The translations under genes were made by a program, and so were the position numbers. Under the pieces are notes generated by a model. That model ran no database searches. It was not told the DNA's origin and worked only from the letters and a program-made list of their open reading frames with translations. From the NCBI RefSeq assembly GCF_900092655.1, contig NZ_FLUY01000587.1:1-32844 (forward strand): 32,844 nt of DNA, given 5' to 3'. This document shows, piece by piece, positions 3,440 to 32,059 of the stretch. The first letter of the stretch is position 1. Each line of letters opens with the position of its first letter. Origin of the DNA: Candidatus Thiosymbion oneisti. GTDB taxonomy: Bacteria > Pseudomonadota > Gammaproteobacteria > Chromatiales > Chromatiaceae.

Positions 3440-3471
3440 CAAAATTAAGGACCCTAGCCCTACCCAGGCTC

Positions 3472-3597
3472 TCCATCGAGGTTCCGAACCTCTCCGTTGA
3501 GTCTTCAAGACTCTCGGTTGAGTGTTCAACACTTTCCGTTGAGTCCTCAAGACTCTCCACCGAGTGTTCAGGACTCTCCGTTGAGTCTTCAGGGCCG
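3472..3597. repeat. Six tandem 21-bp units, each with an internal palindrome
   Basis: Units start at 3472, 3493, 3514, 3535, 3556 and 3577. The typical unit is TCCGTTGAGTCTTCAAGACTC, in which GAGTCTTCAAGACTC folds on itself (GAGTCTTGAAGACTC on the other strand). Several units carry changes on both arms that keep the pairing, for example GAGTGTTCAACACTT. Because 21 is a multiple of three, several frames stay open as heptapeptide repeats, but none shows a credible gene start or domain. Confidence 0.85.
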
Positions 3598-7410: not shown

Positions 7411-10014
7411 ATGAGCGAAGAATTAATACAGATTTCCCCAAAGCTGCTGGGGCGGTATCTTTATTACCGAATTGGCAGTTCTACACTTTCTCAACTGAAA
7501 AAGCAGAAAGTAATTAAAGGGAAATTCACACAGGATATTGCGCAGAAGAAGCCGGACGGACTAGTTGTACTTACAGGTGGTGATGTCAAAGCTATTATTG
7601 AGTACAAACAGCCATCGGAGCTTCAAACGAAATCTCAGGTAGACAGGGCAATAAATCAAGAAATAGAAGTTGCCAAACAGTTATGCAAGCTACTGATTGT
7701 TACATCAGGCAAGAAAACCGTTTGGGTTAATGCGCTGAATGGTGAGCGCATCCTTTCTGAAAATGGAAAGGAACTTAAGCAGGTATTCGATACCCAGCCC
7801 ATAGAGGAAGGTTCCCTATCCAATGAGGAGGTGGTAGCACTCGAACAGCTTATCGATAAAATCGACCATTCGCTGACTGAAAAAAATAACACGATTGCCC
7901 TGCCAGAAGTATTAGACCCTTCACAATTAGCCAGAACCATCTGGCAAAAGATATGGATTAATACCGGCAAAGAGCCGGAAAAGTGTCTTTACAATGTGGT
8001 GGAGCTATTCGTATTTAAGTTTCTCAGCGATCTTGGGGTTCTGCGCTCACATAATAATTTTAGCTCTGTATATGCCTTAACGCAGGCTGAATCATCCATT
8101 GAAGCATTAAAGCATTATGCCAATATTTGTCGGAAAGAAATACGAGAATTATTTCCTGAAGGAAAAGATGGAACGACCGTAATCAATGGTACTATTTTTG
8201 TTAACGAAAAGGGCGAACCGAACATAGCGCAGGCAAGTTTGTTCGGTGAGGTTCTGCGCGACTTGCAGGACTATGACAGTGAGTTTGGATCATTTAAATA
8301 CATTAAGAAAGAATTTAAGACGCGACTGTATGAGTCCTTTCTGCGACAGAATGCGGGCATACGCTTCTTAGGGCAGTATTTCACGCCGCGCAATGTGCTA
8401 AAAGCGGTTGTTGCCATGTCTGATGCCTCGCAACTAAAGAAAGGATCTAGAGTATGCGATCCATTCTGCGGTGTTGGGGGGTTCCTTTTGGAACTAATCT
8501 CTGAGAATAAGCAGATATGGAGAGAGTTTGAGCCGGTAGACGGAAAAGTACTGCCCCAAATCACAGTTATTGGTTATGATAAGGGTAGTGATGAGAAAGA
8601 GGATGAGCGCACTATTATTTTGGCAAAGGCCAATATGCTCATTTATTTTTCTGACTTATTGGTTAAGTATCCTACAAAAGATTACCTAAAAGCGTTTTCG
8701 GAAGGTGCATTTAATGAGGTGTTCCACCTTCTACGCTCTAATTTGGGCACATTCGGCAGAGTTAATAGTGAGCCTTTCGACTTGATTCTAACCAATCCTC
8801 CTTATGTTACCAGCGGTTCAAGCAGCCTTAAGCGCGCTATTGATGAAGAAGGATTATCTACTCACTACACATCCGGGGGGAGAGGCACGGAAACCCTTTC
8901 TATGGAATGGATTGTCAGCAATTTAAAAATCGACGGCCAGGCATTGGTTGTTGTTCCTGATGGCCTGCTGAATCAGGCTGTAATGCTGGCATACTTAAAA
9001 ACCTATTGTATCATTCAAGGTATTGTTTCCCTCCCTACCAGAACCTTCTATTCTACACCGAAGAAGACCTACATACTTGTCCTAAGAAAGAAGACGGATA
9101 CCAACGAAGAACAGGAAAGCCCCGTGTTCACTTATCTTGTCAGTGAAATTGGTGAAACACGTGATGCTAATCGTTGGCTTACGGATAAGAATGATTTAGC
9201 TGAATTGGTTTCTTCGTTTAATCAGTTTAAAGGTGCCCCATCCTACTTTAAAAGCATGTCGAAACGCTGTAAAGTCGTCAAGTTTGATGAATTCAGCAAA
9301 AAAACAAACTGGTTAGTTGACCGCTGGTGGAGTAAAGAAGAAAGAGTATCTTTAGGTGTGGAGGATAGTATCAGGGAAGTTAGTGAGCATGAATACTTCC
9401 AGATGGTAAATAAAGCCAACAATACAATATCATCATTGCTTGATAATGAATTAACAAATAATGGCTCGGGTGATGCGGTCAGGCTTAAAACAATCAGGCT
9501 TGATGAAGAATCTTTCTTTAGCCTTGAAATAGGTGAGAGAATATTGAAAAAAGATCAGCTTGAAGAAGGTATCCCTGCATATAGCGCAAATGTAAATGAG
9601 CCTTTTGGCTTTATTGAAGACTCAAATCTGAATGACTTTAGTCGCCCGTCTTTGATATGGGGTATAGATGGCGTATTTGATTGGGGATACATCCCCGAAA
9701 ATGTCGAGTTTGCCACTACGGACCATTGTGGCAGACTGACTACCGAAGAAATTGATCTGCATCCTAAGTATATCTATTACGCACTGAAAAGCACGAAGGA
9801 CCAGTACGGGTTTGACAGGACGTATAGAGCATCGTTGAAAAACATCCGACAGGTCGTTTCTGTGGATGTACCAGTAAACGAAGGTGGCGACTTTGACCTA
9901 GATACACAGATAGCAATAGCAGAGCGCTACGAAAAGCTGGAAACCGCTAAAGCTAAGATTTTGGAACAGCTTGAAATACTTTCGTCTGTTCAAGTGACTC
10001 TGGATAATTTATGA
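7411..10014 (+). CDS. Single-chain restriction-modification enzyme (Type IIG-like; nuclease, methylase, specificity)
   Basis: The ATG at 7411 gives 867 residues starting MSEELIQISPKLLG; 24 more residues upstream are host-like sequence and unlikely to be translated. Residues 1-120 hold a PD-(D/E)XK nuclease (P48-D49…E64-x-K66, in KPDG…IIEYKQ). A helical HsdM-like region and an N6-adenine methylase follow, with GQYFTPRNV at about 321-329, motif I DPFCGVGGF at 350-358 and motif IV NPPY at 462-465. The last ~230 residues resemble a Type I/IIG target-recognition domain ending in a coiled coil. One chain can thus recognise, methylate and cut DNA. The gene is visibly AT-rich compared with both neighbours, a sign of recent transfer. 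No separate hsdR or hsdS is adjacent. The recognition sequence cannot be predicted. Confidence 0.88.
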   Translation: MSEELIQISPKLLGRYLYYRIGSSTLSQLKKQKVIKGKFTQDIAQKKPDGLVVLTGGDVKAIIEYKQPSELQTKSQVDRAINQEIEVAKQLCKLLIVTSGKKTVWVNALNGERILSENGKELKQVFDTQPIEEGSLSNEEVVALEQLIDKIDHSLTEKNNTIALPEVLDPSQLARTIWQKIWINTGKEPEKCLYNVVELFVFKFLSDLGVLRSHNNFSSVYALTQAESSIEALKHYANICRKEIRELFPEGKDGTTVINGTIFVNEKGEPNIAQASLFGEVLRDLQDYDSEFGSFKYIKKEFKTRLYESFLRQNAGIRFLGQYFTPRNVLKAVVAMSDASQLKKGSRVCDPFCGVGGFLLELISENKQIWREFEPVDGKVLPQITVIGYDKGSDEKEDERTIILAKANMLIYFSDLLVKYPTKDYLKAFSEGAFNEVFHLLRSNLGTFGRVNSEPFDLILTNPPYVTSGSSSLKRAIDEEGLSTHYTSGGRGTETLSMEWIVSNLKIDGQALVVVPDGLLNQAVMLAYLKTYCIIQGIVSLPTRTFYSTPKKTYILVLRKKTDTNEEQESPVFTYLVSEIGETRDANRWLTDKNDLAELVSSFNQFKGAPSYFKSMSKRCKVVKFDEFSKKTNWLVDRWWSKEERVSLGVEDSIREVSEHEYFQMVNKANNTISSLLDNELTNNGSGDAVRLKTIRLDEESFFSLEIGERILKKDQLEEGIPAYSANVNEPFGFIEDSNLNDFSRPSLIWGIDGVFDWGYIPENVEFATTDHCGRLTTEEIDLHPKYIYYALKSTKDQYGFDRTYRASLKNIRQVVSVDVPVNEGGDFDLDTQIAIAERYEKLETAKAKILEQLEILSSVQVTLDNL

Positions 10015-13680: not shown

Positions 13681-13683
13681 CTA

Positions 13684-13826
13684 GGTCGTGTTGACATTTA
13701 GCAGGTCCGCACAGCGGACCCTACGCTAACCAGCTGATTGACTGTAGGGTCCGCTGTGCGGACCGCCGGAATGTTGCAGTCATTCAACATGTGAAAACAG
13801 TCGGTTAGTTAAATGTCAACAGGACC
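13684..13826. mobile_element. MITE copy A, TA target duplication
   Basis: 143 bp. The ends are GGTCGTGTTGACATTTA and TAAATGTCAACAGGACC, near-perfect inverted repeats, flanked by TA on both sides (13682-13683 and 13827-13828) within CTAG-like context. Internally GTCCGCACAGCGGACCCTAC is repeated in inverse as GTAGGGTCCGCTGTGCGGAC, so the element folds into a long hairpin. A second copy is at 24464-24608 between ruvA and ruvB. No transposase is encoded. The TA duplication and the ends suggest mobilisation by an IS630- or IS5-type transposase (inference). Confidence 0.85.
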
Positions 13827-13942
13827 TAGTACCTGGTTTCGATCGATATTGCTAGTCCACACACTAGAACGGGTAAGCAAAGCGTGTGAGCCAGCAGATA
13901 CTATGAACTTGCAACATAAGTCGAAACTAGATGCTAGCGTAA

Positions 13943-17724: not shown

Positions 17725-20700
17725 ATGAAAAGAAGGCTCCGAGTCCTGGTCTTGTCATCGTCGATCATTGCCGCCTTTGCCGCGGTCCTGGTCCTGGCCG
17801 GGGTGCTCTTGCTGGATTGGGCGAAGGGTCAGCTCGCCGCGAGTGGTCTCGGCGATGTGGATTTCGCCGTCGAAGGTCTTTCTCTCGACCGCTTGTCGCT
17901 CTCGGACATCCGCTTTGGGCTGGGCCGGGAGCAAAATGTGGAGCGGCTTACCCTGCTGTTTCATCCGACCCGGTTGGTGCGCGATCGGTCCTTGGACAAG
18001 GTCCTGATCGAGGGTGCGGAGCTGCGTTTCATCCCAGGGGATGATAGTGTTCCCCAGCTCGCGGGGGTATCCCTGCCCGAGACGCCAGGGGACAAGGCCA
18101 ATTTGAAGATGCCCGCGCTCCCCGTCGCGAGCCTGGAGCTGCGGGCCAGTCGCTTGAACCTGGAAACGGGGAGAGGGACGCTGCAGATTCCGCTGCGCGG
18201 CACATTGACACAAACAGATGTGGGGGCCTGGGCACTCGACGCCCAACTGGAATTGCGCTATCAGGGGGCGTACAGGCAGGGGACACACAGGCAGGAGGCG
18301 CGCGGGGCGCTCGCAGTGAAGGGGCGACTGGAACAGGACGGTGCGGCGAAGCTGGAGGTGGCGCTAGCGGGCGCCGAAGGGTGGCTTCCCGAGGGGTTGG
18401 ACACCCATGGAGCGGGCCAGGCCAGTGTGGAGTGGGATGGGGGCGAGCAGTTCTCCGGCACCGGCAGCCTGGCGGTGCATCTGGCCGAATCGCCCGTGAT
18501 GCTCGCTGTTCAGGCCGGCAAGACTCAGGGTGAGGCGTTTGCCTTCGCATTGGATCTGGACGCATCGGAGCTGGATCTGGCTACTCTGGATGAGCTGGCG
18601 GAATCCGGTGCCGGCCTTGCCGGCCGGGCATCCTTACAGACCCGGATCGAGGGGGCTCTGCCTGTCCTCTCCGAACGCTGGCTGGAAGCAGCGTCAGCGA
18701 GCGGGCGGATTTCCTTCCGAATCAAGGACGGGGCCTTTCCTGGCTCGGCAGCGAAGGCGGTAGATGAAGTCACGCTCGAGGTCCAGGCCAACAAGACCCA
18801 GGGTAAGGGGCTTGCCTTTGGATTGGACCTGAATACATCGGAGCTGGATCTGGCTGCTCTGGATGAGTTGGCGGGATCCGGTGTCGGCCTTGCCGGTCGG
18901 GCATCCTTGCAGGCCCGGATCGAGGGGGCCTTGCCCATCCTCTCCGAACGCTGGCTGGAAGCAGCGTCAGCGAACGGACGGATTTCCCTCCGAATCCGGG
19001 ATGGCACCCTTCCCGACTTGGTAGCGGAGGCGTCGGGTGCCCTCGACCTGGACCTGTCCTTATCCGAGGCCTCCCTCCTGGCCGTACCCGCATCGCCCTG
19101 GGAGGTAACCGGTCGCCTGGTCGGCCTTGACCCGCCCGCAGGCTTCCGGCTCTCCGACGTCAAGGGGCACAGCCTTAGGCTCACCTCGAGTACCGACCTG
19201 GCGCGACAGACCGCCGCGGGTGCAGTCGGCTTTGCCCTCGAAGTTCCGTCCCAACCCAAGATCGCGGGGAGAGTATCCGGCCGTGTGGAGTACGCCCCGG
19301 AAGACGGGCTCCGATTCGATCTGGAGCGGCTCCGGCTCGATCCCATCAGCTGGACCCACGACGGAATGGAAATCCGCATGGGGGCGCTGGACGCACGACT
19401 GGCCGGAACGGCGTCGCATATGCAGGGCCGGGTTTCCACACGGTTGGATGTCTCCGATGTCACCTACGGCGGTGAGCGCCTGACCGGAGGTGAAATCGAG
19501 CTGGAGGGAGATCTGACGCACACGGATGAGGGCCTGGTGCTCGCAGTGAAGGATTGCGTATCGGTACGGGCAAAACGCCTGGATTTGGGGGGAGTCCGGT
19601 GGTTGCGTCCGGTCGATCTGTGTGTCCGCCAGGCCAAGGGAAGGCCGCTGTTGCGATTCGATCCTACCCAGCAGACCTGGTCACTGGCCTTGACCCTACC
19701 GAGCCATCCTGCGGTCCTGGCGGTCGAGCACGGACAAGACGACCCCCTCGAGCTTGCCGGTACCATGCCCCAGGCAAGGCTGTCTGCGACATTTAATCCA
19801 ACTACGCAGGCACTCAAGCTGGTACTGAACACCCAGGGAGGACACTTGAAGCTCGCCGAGCAGGCGGTGGCCGTTTCGGACATCAGGCTGGCCTTGCTCC
19901 AGGATCGAGCGACCTCGGTGACCTTGCAGCACGCGGTCGCAACCAGCCTTGCGAGCCCCCCCGATTTCCCGGCCTTGGTCCTGGCGGGCAAGGCGAAGGG
20001 GCGTTTAGACAAAACCATGGCGTTCGAGCTGGTCGCCCGAGGGCGCCGGGTGCCGTTCAAGCTCTCCGCCAAGGGTAAGCACCACTTTGGGTTGGCCATC
20101 GGCGAGCTGAGCTACCGGCTGGATAAGATCCGATTCTCGCCGCAAGGGCTGCAACCGGGCGACCTGGTCCCCGCGTTGGGAAAGTTCATCAGCGAGGCGC
20201 GCGGCTCCTTGGCCGTGAGCGGCGGTCTTTCCTGGATCGCAGGGGTTCCCGCTACCCACTTGCGCCTGGCGTTGGATGATCTGGGATTCGATGCGCCGGG
20301 GCTATCGGTCAGGGGGCTCAATACGCGGCTCCGGCGCGCGGGTCGGACGGTTCGAAACCAGCTGGACACCCAGGAAATCCGGGTCGATCTCCTGGACATC
20401 GGCATACCTTTGCGCAATGGCCTGATTCGGTTCCACACCAGAGAGGCCCCATCCGTCCGTATCGAGCAGCTCGACTTCACCTGGGGTGGTGGTGGGGTGC
20501 AAATAGAACCGCTTGCTTTGCAGTTCGACCAGCTTGCGGCGGAGCACTCCATCATTCTGAAATTCGAGGCCGTCAGATTGAATCCCCTGCTCCGGCTGAT
20601 CCCGGTCGATGGGCTGTGGGGCACCGGGTTCTTGAGCGGACGGGTGCCGCTGCGCATCCGCGGCTCCGAGATCGCCGTCGACCAGGGCTCGATCAGCGCC

Positions 20701-21018
20701 GAGACGCCTGGCCTGTTGCGCTATCGACCCGAGGAAAAACCAGGGTTTTTCGATAACAGCAGCGAAACGGAGCTGCTGTTCGAGGCCCTGCGGAATTTCC
20801 ATTACGAGTCTCTGTCTATCGGGCTGAACGGCAGGACCCAGGATAACCTGCAACTCTCGATCTCGCTCGCCGGCGCCAATCCCGACCTCTACGATGGTCA
20901 CCCGTTCAAGCTGAACTTCAATCTGACCGGGGAGCTTGATACGATTATCCGCCGTAGCCTGGCGATCGCAACCTTCGCCGAAAGGTTCGGGGAACTCATG
21001 TCCCGCTATTTCAAGTAG
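17725..21018 (+). CDS. ydbH: YdbH-family intermembrane phospholipid transport protein
   Basis: 1097 residues, larger than the ~880 of E. coli YdbH. An N-terminal membrane anchor spans about residues 8-32 (VLVLSSSIIAAFAAVLVLAG). The rest is a long, beta-rich periplasmic chain, with the conserved C-terminal AsmA-like/'dicarboxylate transport' region (about 880-1097: NPLLRLIPVDGLWGTGFLSG, then FNLTGELDTIIRRS). YdbH is one of the AsmA-like bridges, with TamB and YhdP, that move phospholipids from inner to outer membrane. Part of the extra length comes from a tandem 273-bp duplication (91 residues) at 18508-18780 and 18781-19032. The order ydbH-ynbE-ydbL is conserved. Confidence 0.9.
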   Translation: MKRRLRVLVLSSSIIAAFAAVLVLAGVLLLDWAKGQLAASGLGDVDFAVEGLSLDRLSLSDIRFGLGREQNVERLTLLFHPTRLVRDRSLDKVLIEGAELRFIPGDDSVPQLAGVSLPETPGDKANLKMPALPVASLELRASRLNLETGRGTLQIPLRGTLTQTDVGAWALDAQLELRYQGAYRQGTHRQEARGALAVKGRLEQDGAAKLEVALAGAEGWLPEGLDTHGAGQASVEWDGGEQFSGTGSLAVHLAESPVMLAVQAGKTQGEAFAFALDLDASELDLATLDELAESGAGLAGRASLQTRIEGALPVLSERWLEAASASGRISFRIKDGAFPGSAAKAVDEVTLEVQANKTQGKGLAFGLDLNTSELDLAALDELAGSGVGLAGRASLQARIEGALPILSERWLEAASANGRISLRIRDGTLPDLVAEASGALDLDLSLSEASLLAVPASPWEVTGRLVGLDPPAGFRLSDVKGHSLRLTSSTDLARQTAAGAVGFALEVPSQPKIAGRVSGRVEYAPEDGLRFDLERLRLDPISWTHDGMEIRMGALDARLAGTASHMQGRVSTRLDVSDVTYGGERLTGGEIELEGDLTHTDEGLVLAVKDCVSVRAKRLDLGGVRWLRPVDLCVRQAKGRPLLRFDPTQQTWSLALTLPSHPAVLAVEHGQDDPLELAGTMPQARLSATFNPTTQALKLVLNTQGGHLKLAEQAVAVSDIRLALLQDRATSVTLQHAVATSLASPPDFPALVLAGKAKGRLDKTMAFELVARGRRVPFKLSAKGKHHFGLAIGELSYRLDKIRFSPQGLQPGDLVPALGKFISEARGSLAVSGGLSWIAGVPATHLRLALDDLGFDAPGLSVRGLNTRLRRAGRTVRNQLDTQEIRVDLLDIGIPLRNGLIRFHTREAPSVRIEQLDFTWGGGGVQIEPLALQFDQLAAEHSIILKFEAVRLNPLLRLIPVDGLWGTGFLSGRVPLRIRGSEIAVDQGSISAETPGLLRYRPEEKPGFFDNSSETELLFEALRNFHYESLSIGLNGRTQDNLQLSISLAGANPDLYDGHPFKLNFNLTGELDTIIRRSLAIATFAERFGELMSRYFK
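18508..19032 (+). repeat. Tandem 273-bp duplication inside ydbH
   Basis: VQAGKTQGEAFAF…ALPVLSERWLEAASASGRIS is followed 273 bases later by VQANKTQGKGLAF…ALPILSERWLEAASANGRIS. The two units keep frame and differ by scattered substitutions. The second unit fades out after about 250 bases. The unit should add one more stretch of beta strands to the lipid-binding groove (inference). Confidence 0.88.
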
Positions 21019-21837: not shown

Positions 21838-22392
21838 ATGTTCAACGAGCGCAAAGCGGCCCAGATGGCAGCCTACCTGCTGCACAAACGCGGTGGGACC
21901 ATGTCTCACCTGAAGCTCATGAAGCTGCTGTATCTTGCCGATAGAGAGGCAATGGATCGCTACGGTGCCCCAATCTCCGGAGATCTCCTAGTTGCCATGC
22001 CTCATGGACCTGCGCTATCGAACACGCTCAACCATATGGACGGCGATGTCGAGTCTTCCCCCGGCGGCTGGACCGATTGGATTTCCGACCAAGCGGATTA
22101 CGAGCTGATGTTACGGAACCCCGTATCTGTGGAGGACTTGGACGAACTCAGCGAAGCCGAATTGGATGTCCTCGACGCTGTGTGGGAACAGTTTGGCTCG
22201 ATGGGGCGTTGGGCGCTACGCGACTATACGCATACTCATTGCCCTGAATGGGAGGACCCGCGGGGGTCATCAAATCCTATTCCGTATTACCGGGTTTTTC
22301 GCGCGCTTGGGAGATCACTGCAGGACGCCCGTGCGTTGAGTGATCGGATAGAGTCACACGCTAAGCTCGACCGGCTCTTTGCCGCGCTGTGA
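21838..22392 (+). CDS. Panacea-domain (SocA/DUF4065) antitoxin
   Basis: 184 residues from the ATG at 21838, with AGGATAGGG upstream. The Panacea pattern is clear: KAAQMAAYLLHKRGGTMSHLKLMKLLYLADREAMDRYG, then GDLLVAMPHGPALSNTLN, and YTHTHCPEWEDP in the second half. Panacea domains act as adaptable antitoxins that neutralise unrelated toxin types by direct binding. The toxin-candidate gene follows with a 4-base overlap (GTGA), the usual coupling. The protein looks complete. Confidence 0.85.
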   Translation: MFNERKAAQMAAYLLHKRGGTMSHLKLMKLLYLADREAMDRYGAPISGDLLVAMPHGPALSNTLNHMDGDVESSPGGWTDWISDQADYELMLRNPVSVEDLDELSEAELDVLDAVWEQFGSMGRWALRDYTHTHCPEWEDPRGSSNPIPYYRVFRALGRSLQDARALSDRIESHAKLDRLFAAL

Positions 22393-22832
22393 AGTTGTTT
22401 CTGCCCGTGCGGCGGGCGACCCTGCTGATTCCCTCGGGTCCCGTGCAGGACCCTACCCGGAAGCACTTATTCATTCTACTCACCGACCCCCGCCCGGATG
22501 ATCGCCTGACGCTGCTGGTCAGCATCTCTTCCGTTAATCCGAGAATTCACCACGACGGTACATGCCTATTGTTCGTTGGCGACCATACTTTCATTAAACG
22601 AGATAGCTACGTGAACTTCGCGCAGGCGAGAATCGAGAGCGTGGACAAACTGGAAGCGGGTGTGCGTGAAGGGATCCTCGTCCCTCAAGGAACCATTAAA
22701 GGCGATGTATTTGCTAGAATCTGCCGTGGGTTGATGGAATCTCGATTCACCCCACAAAAAGCAAAGCGATTTTACGAGGAGCTGTACCCCAATGCCATTA
22801 AGTTAAGCGTCACCGGCGCTGTTTGTGATTGA
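22389..22832 (+). CDS. Putative toxin of the Panacea pair, C-terminus altered by an element
   Basis: The GTG at 22389 overlaps the antitoxin stop (GTGA). 147 residues: KHLFILLTDPRPDDRLTLLVSISSV near the start, VGDHTFIKRDSYVNFAQARI in the middle and RICRGLMESRFTPQKAKRFY near the end. This is a small beta-barrel-like pattern reminiscent of PemK/MazF-like toxins; the fold is inferred, not shown. The last ~12 residues (NAIKLSVTGAVCD) are encoded by an inserted element that begins at 22790; without it the frame would end …EELYPGVER. The conserved body is intact. Confidence 0.7.
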   Translation: MKLFLPVRRATLLIPSGPVQDPTRKHLFILLTDPRPDDRLTLLVSISSVNPRIHHDGTCLLFVGDHTFIKRDSYVNFAQARIESVDKLEAGVREGILVPQGTIKGDVFARICRGLMESRFTPQKAKRFYEELYPNAIKLSVTGAVCD

Positions 22833-22914
22833 TTGATCGCTGTTTTTCATTTGCCCTCTCCCCAACCCCTCTCCCGCCGGGAGAGGGGCTGTGAGGCTTA
22901 ACTTAATGACATTG
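22790..22914. mobile_element. 125-bp MITE-like element with 10-11-bp target duplication
   Basis: The terminal inverted repeats are CAATGCCATTAAGTTAAG (22790-22807) and CTTAACTTAATGACATTG (22897-22914), 17 of 18 matching. They are flanked directly by AGCTGTACCC at 22780-22789 and 22915-22924. Inside lies the palindrome CTCTCCCGCCGGGAGAGG. A 10-12-bp duplication would fit an IS4-type transposase (inference). It starts within the toxin gene and supplies the toxin's current C-terminus and stop. Confidence 0.8.
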
Positions 22915-23108: not shown

Positions 23109-23639
23109 ATGCCCTCTGTTTTGCGCCACCGCATCTTAGGCATCGATCCAGGCTCCCGCACGACCGGATTCGGGATAATCGACACGGACGGCAGGCGTAG
23201 CGTCCGCGTTGCCGGCGGCTGTATTCGGGTCGATCACCTGCCTTGGCCACGGCGGTTGGGCGTGCTCTTCGACGGCATCGCCCAGGTGGTGGAGGAGTAT
23301 CGGCCCCATGAAATGGCGGTGGAGCAGCTCATCTTTGCCCGCGATGTGACCGCCGCCCTGAAGCTCGGTCAGGCCCGGGGGGCGGTGCTCTGCGCCGGGC
23401 TCAAGGGGGATATACAGGTCCACGAGTACAGCCCCAAATCGGTCAAGCTCGCCGTCGTGGGCACCGGGAGTGCGGAGAAGGCCCAGGTACAACACATGGT
23501 GCGGCTCCTGCTCTCCCTTGCGGAAACGCCACCGGAGGACGAGGCCGATGCCCTGGCCCTCGCCCTGTGTCATGCCCACTCCATGGGGATACCGGCGCGC
23601 CGCAGGGCCACAGCATCCTGGAGGGATTTTCGGCCGTGA
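23109..23639 (+). CDS. ruvC: Holliday-junction resolvase RuvC
   Basis: 176 residues from the ATG at 23109; a TTG at 23121 with better spacing from AAGAG is an alternative. The RNase-H-like catalytic acids are all present: Asp13 in ILGIDPGS, Glu72 in AVEQLIFARD, and Asp144 and Asp147 in PEDEADALALALCHAH. RuvC cuts the four-way junction after branch migration by RuvAB. The usual upstream neighbour yebC is absent; instead a transposase relic and a MITE precede it, so the original promoter was probably displaced. The stop overlaps the ruvA start (GTGA). Confidence 0.95.
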   Translation: MPSVLRHRILGIDPGSRTTGFGIIDTDGRRSVRVAGGCIRVDHLPWPRRLGVLFDGIAQVVEEYRPHEMAVEQLIFARDVTAALKLGQARGAVLCAGLKGDIQVHEYSPKSVKLAVVGTGSAEKAQVQHMVRLLLSLAETPPEDEADALALALCHAHSMGIPARRRATASWRDFRP

Positions 23640-24244
23640 TCGGCAGGCTACGCGGTGAGATCGTCTCCAAACATCCGCCCCAGCTTATGCTCGAGGTAAA
23701 CGGCGTCGGCTACGAGCTCGAGGCCCCCATGTCCACCTTCTACGATCTGCCGCCCGTCGGGGAGCAGGTCACGCTGGTCACTCATCTGACCGTGCGCGAG
23801 GACGCCCAGCTGCTCTACGGCTTTCTGCGCGAGGAGGACCGTGCCCTGTTCCGCAATCTGCTCAAGGTCAACGGTGTAGGTGCGCGCATGGCCCTGGCCA
23901 TTCTCTCCGGCATGGACGCCCGGCAGTTCGCCCTGTGTGTCCGGCAGGAGGATGTCACTGCCCTGACGCGATTACCCGGCATCGGTAAGAAGACGGCCCA
24001 GCGCCTGGTTATGGAGCTGCGGGATCGCGTAGATGCGGTGCCTACCGGGTCGCCGGTCGGTGTTGCGTCCTCGCCATCGACCGGCGGCAGTGAAGGTTCT
24101 GCGTTAGTCGATGCGATCGGTGCGCTTACGGCCCTCGGCTACAAGCCCGCCGACGCCAACCGTATGGCCCGCGCGGCGGACGACGGGACCAAGACCTCCG
24201 AGGAGATCATTCGCGCCGCACTCAAAGCGGTGAACACACCCTGA
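23636..24244 (+). CDS. ruvA: Holliday-junction branch-migration protein RuvA
   Basis: The GTG at 23636 is chosen because it gives V/MIGRLRGEIVSK, the conserved N-terminus, overlaps the ruvC stop by four bases and has GGAGG upstream; the frame is open 69 bases further. 202 residues. The N-terminal OB domain ends near VREDAQLLYGF, followed by two helix-hairpin-helix motifs (LLKVNGVGARMALAIL and LTRLPGIGKKTAQRLV) and the C-terminal RuvB-binding domain (DAIGALTALGYKPADA). The tetramer holds the junction flat for RuvB. Confidence 0.96.
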   Translation: MIGRLRGEIVSKHPPQLMLEVNGVGYELEAPMSTFYDLPPVGEQVTLVTHLTVREDAQLLYGFLREEDRALFRNLLKVNGVGARMALAILSGMDARQFALCVRQEDVTALTRLPGIGKKTAQRLVMELRDRVDAVPTGSPVGVASSPSTGGSEGSALVDAIGALTALGYKPADANRMARAADDGTKTSEEIIRAALKAVNTP

Positions 24245-24255
24245 CACCCTGGTAT

Positions 24256-24450
24256 AGCAGTGCCGAAGTAGCGATAACATCGGTTTGGTTCTTCCATTGG
24301 GAATTCTTTTTTGCCGCAAATGAACGCGAATGAACGCAAATCGGAAGAAATCGATTCGCTATCATTGATGATTCTTAATCTATTCGCGTTTATTTACGGC
24401 TAAATCTTCCGTGAAGATCCTGCCTGCTCTCAATGTTATCGGTAAGTAAG
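24256..24450. repeat. Palindromic repeat in the ruvA-ruvB gap
   Basis: TGCCGCAAATGAACGCGAAT (about 24312) is inverted as ATTCGCGTTTATTTACGGCT (about 24384), with mismatches. The outer ends GAAGTAGCGATAACAT and ATGTTATCGGTAAGTA are also partly inverted. The left half recurs in reverse at about 16630-16700. No gene is present. With the MITE that follows it makes a 384-bp gap between ruvA and ruvB. Confidence 0.65.
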
Positions 24451-24463
24451 AGCATCTGTACTA

Positions 24464-24608
24464 GGTCGTGTTGACATTTAGAAGGTTCGCACAGCGGACC
24501 CTACGTTAACCATCTGATTGACTGTAGGGTCCGCTGTGCGGACCGCCGGAATGTTGCAGTCATTCAACATATGAAAACAGTCGGTTAGCGTTAAATGTCA
24601 ATAGGACC
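24464..24608. mobile_element. MITE copy B, TA target duplication, upstream of ruvB
   Basis: 145 bp, nearly identical to the copy at 13684-13826. Its ends are GGTCGTGTTGACATTTA and TAAATGTCAATAGGACC, flanked by TA at 24462-24463 and 24609-24610. The internal CGCACAGCGGACCCTAC / GTAGGGTCCGCTGTGCG inverted repeat is kept. It ends 20 bases before the ruvB start codon, so it probably replaced the native ribosome-site region. Confidence 0.85.
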
Positions 24609-24628
24609 TAGGCCAAGACGACACCGGC

Positions 24629-25687
24629 ATGAGTGATCCCAACCGCCTGATCCGTCCGGAAGCCGAGTCCGAGGACCAGGCCCTGGACCGGGCCATCCGG
24701 CCCCGGCGCTTGGTCGATTATATCGGCCAGCCGGCGGTGTGCGAGCAGATGGAGATCTTCATCCAGGCCGCCCGTGGGCGTGGTGATGCCTTGGATCATG
24801 TGCTCATCTTCGGTCCGCCGGGACTGGGCAAGACGACGCTGGCCCACATCATTGCCCACGAGCTGCAGGTGGGCCTGCGTCAGACCTCCGGCCCGGTGCT
24901 GGAGAAGCCGGGGGATCTCGCCGCCCTGCTCACCAATCTGGAGCCTGGGGATGTCCTGTTCGTGGATGAGATCCACCGCCTGAGCCCCGTCGTCGAGGAG
25001 GTCCTCTATCCCGCCCTGGAGGACTACCAGCTCGACATCATGATCGGGGAGGGACCGGCCGCCCGTTCCATCAGGCTGGATCTGCCTCCCTTTACGCTCG
25101 TAGGCGCGACGACCCGCGCCGGGCTCTTGACCTCGCCCCTGCGTGACCGCTTCGGGATCGTGCAGCGGTTGGAGTATTACTCGCCAGAGGAGCTTACCCT
25201 TATCGTCCAGCGTTCCGCCGCTATCCTGGGCCTCCCGACCGAGGCGGACGGCGCCCGGGAGATCGCGCGTCGCTCCCGCGGCACGCCCCGCATTGCCAAC
25301 CGGTTGCTGCGGCGGGTGCGGGACTATGCACAGGTCAAGGCCGGGGGCCGCATCACGGCAGAGGTGGCGGACCAGGCGTTGTCCATGCTCAAGGTGGACG
25401 GCTTGGGCTTCGACCACATGGACCGGCGGCTGCTGCAGGCGGTGATCGAGAAGTTCGCTGGCGGACCGGTCGGGGTGGAGAGCCTGGCGGCGGCCATCGG
25501 CGAGGAACGGGGCACCATCGAGGATGTACTCGAGCCCTACCTCATCCAGCAGGGATTTCTCATGCGCACGCCCCGGGGACGGATGGCAACCCCGGCGGCC
25601 TATGGGCACTTCGGCCTGGCCGCGCCACCGGGGGTCTTACCGCAGGCCGAGATGCGGGACTTGTTCGGGAGCGGAGAAGAGGGCTAG
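24629..25687 (+). CDS. ruvB: Holliday-junction helicase RuvB
   Basis: 352 residues from the ATG at 24629. Walker A is GPPGLGKTT at 62-70 and Walker [11 protein letters not shown] at about 109-118; the sensor segment [18 protein letters not shown] and the C-terminal winged helix ([17 protein letters not shown]) are present. RuvB hexamers drive branch migration with RuvA. There is no clear Shine-Dalgarno sequence in the 17 bases between the MITE and the ATG, and the gene is cut off from ruvA by 384 bp of repeats, so its expression may be weaker or driven from within the repeats. Confidence 0.96.
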
Positions 25688-25690
25688 CCC

Positions 25691-25842
25691 GTAGGATGTG
25701 GTGAGCGCGGGAGATTTTTCAGGATAGCACTGCTGGGTGGCGCGAACCGCATCTTTGGACGCTGGGCGGGCCATCCATTGATGCGGTTCGCGTCCTCTCA
25801 TAGTGCCATCCTGTAAGACCCACCGCGCTCACCGCATCCTAC
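25691..25842. repeat. Palindromic repeat between the convergent ruvB and lptB
   Basis: GTAGGATGTGGTGAGCGCGG at 25691 is inverted at 25825-25842 (…GCGCTCACCGCATCCTAC). CAGGATAGCAC pairs with GTGCCATCCTG inside it, and CGCGAACCGCAT with ATGCGGTTCGCG. A partial copy is at 31770-31840. Lying between two converging genes, it may act as a two-way terminator. Confidence 0.8.
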
Positions 25843-31630: not shown

Positions 31631-32059
31631 TCACCGCCGAATAGTCGTCAAAAGGGTAGTGTCAGCGGCCAAGGGTTCATGACGCTGGAGCGTCAGATCC
31701 CTCCTCCGTCGGGACCAGGTTTGCTCCCACGCTGGAGCGTGGGAGCCAGCCGACGAACTCGCATCGACCGTAGGATGCGGTGAGCGCAGTAGGTCTTACA
31801 GGATGGCACCGCGAGGCGGCGCGAACCGCATCAATGATGCGATGAGCCCGCGTAGGTCGGATAAGGCGCGCCTGCTGTGAAGCTGCATTGGCCGCGGTGA
31901 TTGGCGCGCCGTCACCCGACGCCGGGTGGCCATCGTGTCGGGTGGCGGCCATCCTTGGCCTTACCCGACCTTAGCGCTCGTTCCCACGCTCCAGCGTGGG
32001 AACGCCGTCTTGTCCGCTCCAGCGGACTCAGCTCCTCTATAGGCGTCGGCTGTTAGCCT

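What the first reader, a model, noticed from the sequence alone, without database searches (positions are those of the whole stretch)
24462..24628. MITE insertion just upstream of ruvB splits the ruvAB operon
The TA-flanked MITE ends 20 bases before the ruvB ATG and no Shine-Dalgarno sequence remains in between. Together with a second repeat it separates ruvA from ruvB by 384 bp. The RuvAB stoichiometry could be changed, or the element may provide a new promoter.
Basis: partly seen in the sequence, partly recalled or inferred. Interest (0 to 1): 0.5.

Follow-up and report, generated by a model that had tools for sequence, protein, structure and literature searches.

The report
Stacked MITEs between ruvA and ruvB
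Two small non-coding mobile DNA elements sit back to back between two DNA-repair genes of a purple-sulfur-bacterium relative; they are real, but the gene pair was probably already loosened in its ancestors, so this is an ordinary tolerated insertion rather than a new regulatory device.

Summary
A 143-bp MITE-like element (24465-24607, CTAG on both sides) ends 17-18 bp before the ruvB ATG. A second multicopy repeat (24253-24460) fills most of the rest of the 384-bp ruvA-ruvB gap. Both belong to multicopy families of this Chromatiaceae genome and share one CTAG, so the later insertion probably used the target copy made by the earlier one. Without both elements the gap would be about 25-31 bp. 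The missing Shine-Dalgarno is not the element's doing: joined flanks, and ruvB in three congeners, are about as weak. No sigma70-type promoter or terminator consensus was found. The junction is also open in the two congeners that group with this genome, with different fillers (879 bp with an aspartyl-protease-like ORF; probably about 1.6 kb with a DUF4325/HATPase gene). Only G001 keeps a 4-bp overlap. In seven named purple sulfur bacteria no ruvA was found upstream of ruvB. Best reading: ordinary stacked MITEs in an already relaxed junction, co-transcribed as a hairpin spacer. Side find: another copy cuts into the 5' end of recG, and its terminal repeat carries the only in-frame ATG there, so it probably supplies recG's start codon.

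The parts
23109..23639 (+). ruvC
   Evidence: ORF; 88-91% identical ruvC beside ruvA in the three congeners
23636..24244 (+). ruvA, GTG start overlapping the ruvC stop
24249..24252 (.). CTGG, read as a degenerate left copy of the CTAG target of the first element (inference)
   Evidence: sequence; CTAG-like bases at ends of several other copies
24253..24460 (+). Repeat element MITE2, 208 bp, ends TATAGCAG...CTGTA, core GCCGCAAATGAACGCGAATGAACGCAAAT
   Evidence: 52 matches in own genome, alignment of 10 copies
24461..24464 (.). CTAG shared by the right end of MITE2 and the left end of MITE1
   Evidence: same stack at G000:C488 (L004)
24465..24607 (+). MITE1, 143 bp, terminal inverted repeats GTCGTGTTGACATTTA / TAAATGTCAATAGGAC, inner 31-nt palindrome
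24608..24611 (.). Right CTAG of MITE1
24595..24636 (+). 13-codon mini-ORF opened by the outward ATG of the MITE1 right end; its TGA (24634-24636) lies just inside ruvB. Use not shown
24612..24628 (+). Residual ruvB leader, 17 nt, no Shine-Dalgarno; 13 of 17 identical to the ruvB leader of G002
24629..25687 (+). ruvB
13681..13829 (+). Another MITE1 copy in the window, 95-96% identical

Best explanation
Two ordinary non-autonomous MITE-type elements stacked in an already relaxed ruvA-ruvB junction. MITE2 probably entered first, at a CTAG-like site in a junction of roughly 25-31 bp; the target copy left at its right edge then took MITE1. The insert is most likely transcribed as part of the ruvC-ruvA-ruvB message and forms a strong hairpin spacer 17 nt before the ruvB AUG. 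ruvB starts without a Shine-Dalgarno, as in its congeners, so any effect on expression is probably small and selection did not remove it. Shown: the elements, their copy number, the shared CTAG, the relatives' junctions, the weak leaders. Inferred: order of insertion, co-transcription, near-neutrality.
For: Copy families. Of 14 MITE1 copies tried (picked from the 40 places for length), 12 gave both ends: CTAG left in 10 of 12, right in 7 of 12, both in 6 of 12. The same MITE2-CTAG-MITE1 stack at C488. Three short related sites without the element but with one target: G003:C12 and G002:C668 for copy L007 (50 and 37 nt), G002:C212 for copy L014 (37 nt). Gap arithmetic 4+4+208+4+143+4+17 = 384. 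G001 overlap of 4 bp, G003 gap 879 bp; G002 ruvA followed by a 416-aa DUF4325/HATPase gene, contig ends overlapping the ruvB contig. Tree: G000, G002, G003 together, G001 outside. Lamprobacter 148, Halochromatium 79, Lamprocystis MAG 1016 bp. No promoter or terminator consensus.
Against: No transcript data, so read-through is assumed. No orthologous empty site with long matching flanks was found; the three related sites are 37-50 nt long and lie in repeats or short matches, and four of six joined-flank pairs gave none. No parent element with these ends was found. The hairpin is strong, so processing or attenuation is plausible. Tight spacing is common too: at most 60 bp between matches in 12 of 30 family and 10 of 18 other genomes with both genes placed.
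Confidence: 0.65

Rival explanations
1. The MITE1 hairpin in the ruvA-ruvB message is cut by RNase III or attenuates transcription, so that RuvB is made in a different ratio to RuvA.
For: Fold -81.7 kcal/mol, z -12. RNase III cutting of Correia/nemis repeats and transcript effects of ERIC and BIME insertions in operons are described in passages of PMC10969869 and PMC3049150.
Against: No measurement. Predicted openness around the ruvB start is much the same as in joined flanks or G001 (0.38, 0.45, 0.34; a shorter stretch from MITE1 onward gave 0.68). ruvA and ruvB lie apart in several relatives.
Confidence: 0.2
2. The element brings a promoter that transcribes ruvB on its own.
For: Other bacterial MITEs carry sigma70 promoters (passages of PMC10969869; MITEAba12, passages of PMC6382973). 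Both ends hold TTGACA.
Against: 0 sigma70-type sites in 24200-24700 on either strand, 0.5 expected by shuffling; the two TTGACA point inwards (sequence). Other sigma factors are not covered.
Confidence: 0.08
3. The outward ATG in the MITE1 end opens a 13-codon leader ORF that stops inside the ruvB start region and restores translational coupling.
For: Mini-ORF 24595-24636. The same end gives an in-frame start at recG and a 12-codon ORF ending in ATGA on a HigB-like gene start.
Against: The mini-ORF start has no Shine-Dalgarno (-2.4, random level). Of 15 copies tried, 13 gave an ORF from this end, 7 to 505 codons (the longest, recG, runs off its locus), without a pattern; chance is enough.
Confidence: 0.07

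Closest known systems
Chunjie MITE of Geobacter uraniireducens (title and one review passage seen; the paper is not held)
   Same: Short multicopy inverted-repeat element inside an operon; the title says the operon structure was not disturbed, the review passage says the element disrupts one of two phosphate uptake operons
   Different: Different host; sequences not compared here
Correia/nemis repeats of Neisseria (review passages)
   Same: Size class, often just upstream of genes, hairpin in transcripts cut by RNase III; TA-type ends are recalled
   Different: No sigma70 promoter consensus found here; sequences not compared
Pneumococcal RUP/BOX/SPRITE clusters (passages of PMC3049150, and PMC10969869)
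   Same: Repeats of different families cluster and insert into one another
   Different: Here the stacking goes with a shared CTAG target
MITEAba12 of Acinetobacter (passages)
   Same: Start codons near the element ends that could fuse to genes
   Different: 9-bp target duplications and a co-resident IS with the same ends; no such IS found here

Membership tests
MITE (bacterial) | Short and without a transposase ORF | tested here: met
   143 and 208 bp; no transposase could fit
MITE (bacterial) | Terminal inverted repeats | tested here: met
   MITE1: 20 nt, 90% complementary; MITE2 ends are less regular
MITE (bacterial) | Many dispersed copies | tested here: met
   69 matches, at least 40 places; end motif 111 against 5 in the control
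MITE (bacterial) | Target-site duplication | tested here: inconclusive
   CTAG at both ends in 6 of 12 copies; three short related sites with a single target speak for a duplication, but they are 37-50 nt long and TA cannot be told from CTAG
MITE (bacterial) | Parent IS with the same ends in the genome (usual, not obligatory) | tested here: inconclusive
   No paired ends in 30 of 49 DDE_Tnp_1 loci or 14 of 14 DDE_3 loci of the genus; 8 stretches with end motifs held no transposase that I recognised, without a family search. Other transposase families not searched
IS5-type (YTAR target) derived MITE | Related IS5-family transposase with the same ends | tested here: inconclusive
   Only DDE_Tnp_1 searched, 30 of 49 loci read; the YTAR rule is recalled, not from a call

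The most novel reading that the evidence does not exclude
The terminal repeats of this MITE family carry an outward ATG (mostly M-S-T-G/R-P...), so the element works as a mobile translation-start donor: it supplies recG's start codon in this genome and, at ruvB, a leader ORF that re-couples ruvB translation. The two genes belong to the two branch-migration systems, RuvAB and RecG.
Probability: 0.07. Interest if true: 0.5.

Novelty: new member of a known kind. Interest (0 to 1): 0.22.

Why it matters
It suggests a simple way for MITE clusters to grow: an insertion at CTAG leaves a CTAG at its edge for the next element. It also warns against reading a functional change from one split operon, because relatives show that ruvA-ruvB adjacency is loose in this family. 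The recG copy is a concrete, testable case of a mobile repeat supplying a start codon to a DNA-repair gene.

Tried and rejected
Promoter and terminator scan: nothing. Rfam: no match at gathering scores in the window. Parent IS: eight stretches with end motifs, some of them on one strand only, looked at by eye; 30 of 49 DDE_Tnp_1 loci and 14 of 14 DDE_3 loci had no facing pair of ends, though single perfect motifs lay in L245, L326 and L327. Empty sites: six of the 12 joined-flank pairs were searched in G001-G003; pairs L007 and L014 gave short hits across the join (three in all, aligned), L005, L008, L010 and L012 none beyond about 12 nt. The palindrome search (matches in 3 of 4 genomes) was followed for those sites only. 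Loss of a Shine-Dalgarno through the MITE: rejected. A RuvB start inside the element: rejected, the ruvB frame meets TAG at 24602-24604 (sequence). Literature: no held paper with MITE, operon and Chromatiaceae, none with the five CTAG/IS5 terms, none with MITE and alternative start codon.

Mistakes on the way: one search used a wrong ruvA frame and unturned loci and was replaced.

Papers: of PMC10969869, PMC3049150, PMC4853749, PMC5896051, PMC1193525 and PMC6382973 I saw found passages only; others only in search listings or as titles.

Full report
What is there. In the window ruvC (23109-23639), ruvA (23636-24244) and ruvB (24629-25687) run in one direction; ruvC and ruvA overlap, ruvA and ruvB are 384 bp apart. 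The gap divides without remainder into CACC, CTGG, a 208-bp element (24253-24460), CTAG, a 143-bp element (24465-24607), CTAG and 17 nt of leader. Taking out the elements leaves 25 bp if the target is CTAG (used) or 31 bp if it is TA (used). The 143-bp element has ends 90% complementary over 20 nt and a long inner palindrome; as RNA 24461-24611 folds at -81.7 kcal/mol, z -12.

Family. The 143-bp element (MITE1) has 69 matches at no fewer than 40 places of the own genome (4.33 Mb, 1891 contigs; 40 of 111 candidates scored). Its end motif occurs 111 times in G000 (control 5), 81 in G003 (6), 10 in G002 (3) and 6 in G001 (2). Of 55 genomes searched with the element 7 match; the four genomes of the genus have the best E-values, while the matches in G007, G008 and G021 cover the inner palindrome. 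The 208-bp element (MITE2) has 52 matches (40 of 166 candidates scored). Of 14 MITE1 copies tried, 12 gave both ends, 147-151 bp with the TAs: CTAG left in 10 of 12, right in 7 of 12, both in 6; the exceptions are TTAG and GTGG left, CTAA (2), CTGG (2) and TGAG right. Three related sites without the element carry a single target: for copy L007 50 nt in G003:C12 and 37 nt in G002:C668, for copy L014 37 nt in G002:C212. They are short, the two for L007 lie in a palindromic repeat, and so they support a target duplication without proving it. The two families meet at one CTAG in the window and again at C488 (L004), so the target copy left by one element seems to serve the next. In the window CTAG occurs 34 times, Markov expectation 49. 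No parent transposase was found in the part searched.

Did it split an operon? The nearest named record is a Chromatiaceae MAG (JAJDOL010000289.1), with the contig length and ruvB identity of G001. There ruvA and ruvB overlap by 4 bp. In G003 the gap is 879 bp and holds a 158-aa aspartyl-protease-like ORF between what look by eye like inverted repeats. In G002 ruvA is followed by a 416-aa DUF4325/HATPase gene and repeats; the ruvA contig ends in 37 bases with which the ruvB contig begins, so the genes are probably about 1.6 kb apart (by eye, and in repeat sequence, so not certain). A RuvCAB tree joins G000, G002 and G003 (95/94) with G001 outside. The 17 nt before ruvB agree in 13 places between G000 and G002. 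So the junction was most likely open before these elements came. Lamprobacter (148), Halochromatium (79) and a Lamprocystis MAG (1016; near its start the gap has a GCCGCAAATGAACGCAAAT repeat like the core of MITE2) are open too.

Relatives at large. In 17 of 80 named loci no ruvA was found upstream, 13 of them with more than 4 kb held, among them Thiobaca, Thiohalocapsa, Imhoffiella, Thiorhodococcus, Chromatium weissei and two Thiocapsa (one RuvA query, E at most 1e-4, so distant RuvA may be missed; the label purple sulfur bacteria is recalled). In the 55-genome set 48 have both genes placed (distances between match edges). In the family (30): 12 with at most 60 bp, 4 with 61-200, 4 with more than 200, 8 on different contigs (G002 among them) and 2 far apart on one contig. 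Outside it (18): 10, 5, 2 and 1 on different contigs. Left out: G008, G021 and G036 (ruvB only at the cut-off used; for G008 one search shows part of ruvA 5 bp from ruvB) and G012, G016, G037 and G051 (no strong ruvB). G027 was counted from a ruvB fragment. Different contigs may be an assembly effect. Rocha and colleagues report RuvA and RuvB colocalised in 77 of 111 co-occurrences (passage of PMC1193525; author name recalled). Separation is therefore nothing unusual, though tight spacing is the commonest single state.

Shine-Dalgarno and promoter. Anti-SD energy before ruvB is -2.4 with the element and -2.4 in the joined flanks; G001 -3.2, G002 -3.2, G003 -1.1; random mean -2.1; ruvA -9.8. 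The element did not remove a Shine-Dalgarno. No sigma70-type promoter or terminator consensus was found. Start-region openness is 0.38 as it stands, 0.45 in joined flanks, 0.34 in G001; a fold from MITE1 onward alone gives 0.68, so the prediction depends on the stretch folded and shows no clear change.

A more striking copy. At G000:C545 a MITE1 copy lies against recG (RecG_wedge and DEAD domains). In G002 and G003 the likely recG start is a TTG preceded by GGAAG(G/A)AAC, and the codons K-T-Q-A-L that follow shortly after are kept in G000 with synonymous changes only; G001 differs there. In G000 the frame upstream of KTQAL runs into the MITE end, where ATG TCA ACA GGA CCT AGT holds the only start before a stop, giving a 703-aa ORF. 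The TTG codon of the L in KTQAL remains a possible start. The MITE thus seems to have cut off recG's native start and supplied a new one. The same ATG at ruvB (24595) opens only a 13-codon ORF that ends just inside ruvB. MITEAba12 is reported to have start codons near its ends that could fuse with genes (passage), so the idea is known.

Verdict. Real, correctly seen, ordinary. The interest lies in the CTAG stacking and the recG start, not in a proven change of RuvAB.

Noticed in passing
L329 (G000:C545) 127-278 and 262-2373: A MITE1 copy abuts recG; its end ATG is the only in-frame ATG upstream of conserved KTQAL codons, so the MITE probably supplies recG's start codon.
   Followed up: partly
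L141 (G003:C1) about 8261-9139: 879-bp filler of the ruvA-ruvB gap in G003 with a gag-asp-protease-like 158-aa ORF between inverted repeats containing ATTAAGTTAAGCG (repeats by eye).
   Followed up: partly
22790-22914: Inverted repeat with ATTAAGTTAAGCG-type arms like those of the G003 filler; its left arm forms the last codons of the ORF 22389-22832.
   Followed up: no
25691-25842: Large inverted repeat just downstream of ruvB, with similar sequence again at 31755-31836.
   Followed up: no
18496-19032: 264-nt direct repeat in tandem, 84% identical, inside the ORF 17725-21018.
   Followed up: no
3466-3591: 21-nt repeat units in tandem.
   Followed up: no
L010 (G000:C1028) near 1481: A MITE1 copy ends about 20 nt upstream of a HigB-like toxin-antitoxin gene; the ORF from its end ATG ends in an ATGA overlap with that gene's start.
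   Followed up: partly
L178 (G002:C689): A DUF4325/HATPase gene directly downstream of ruvA in G002.
   Followed up: no
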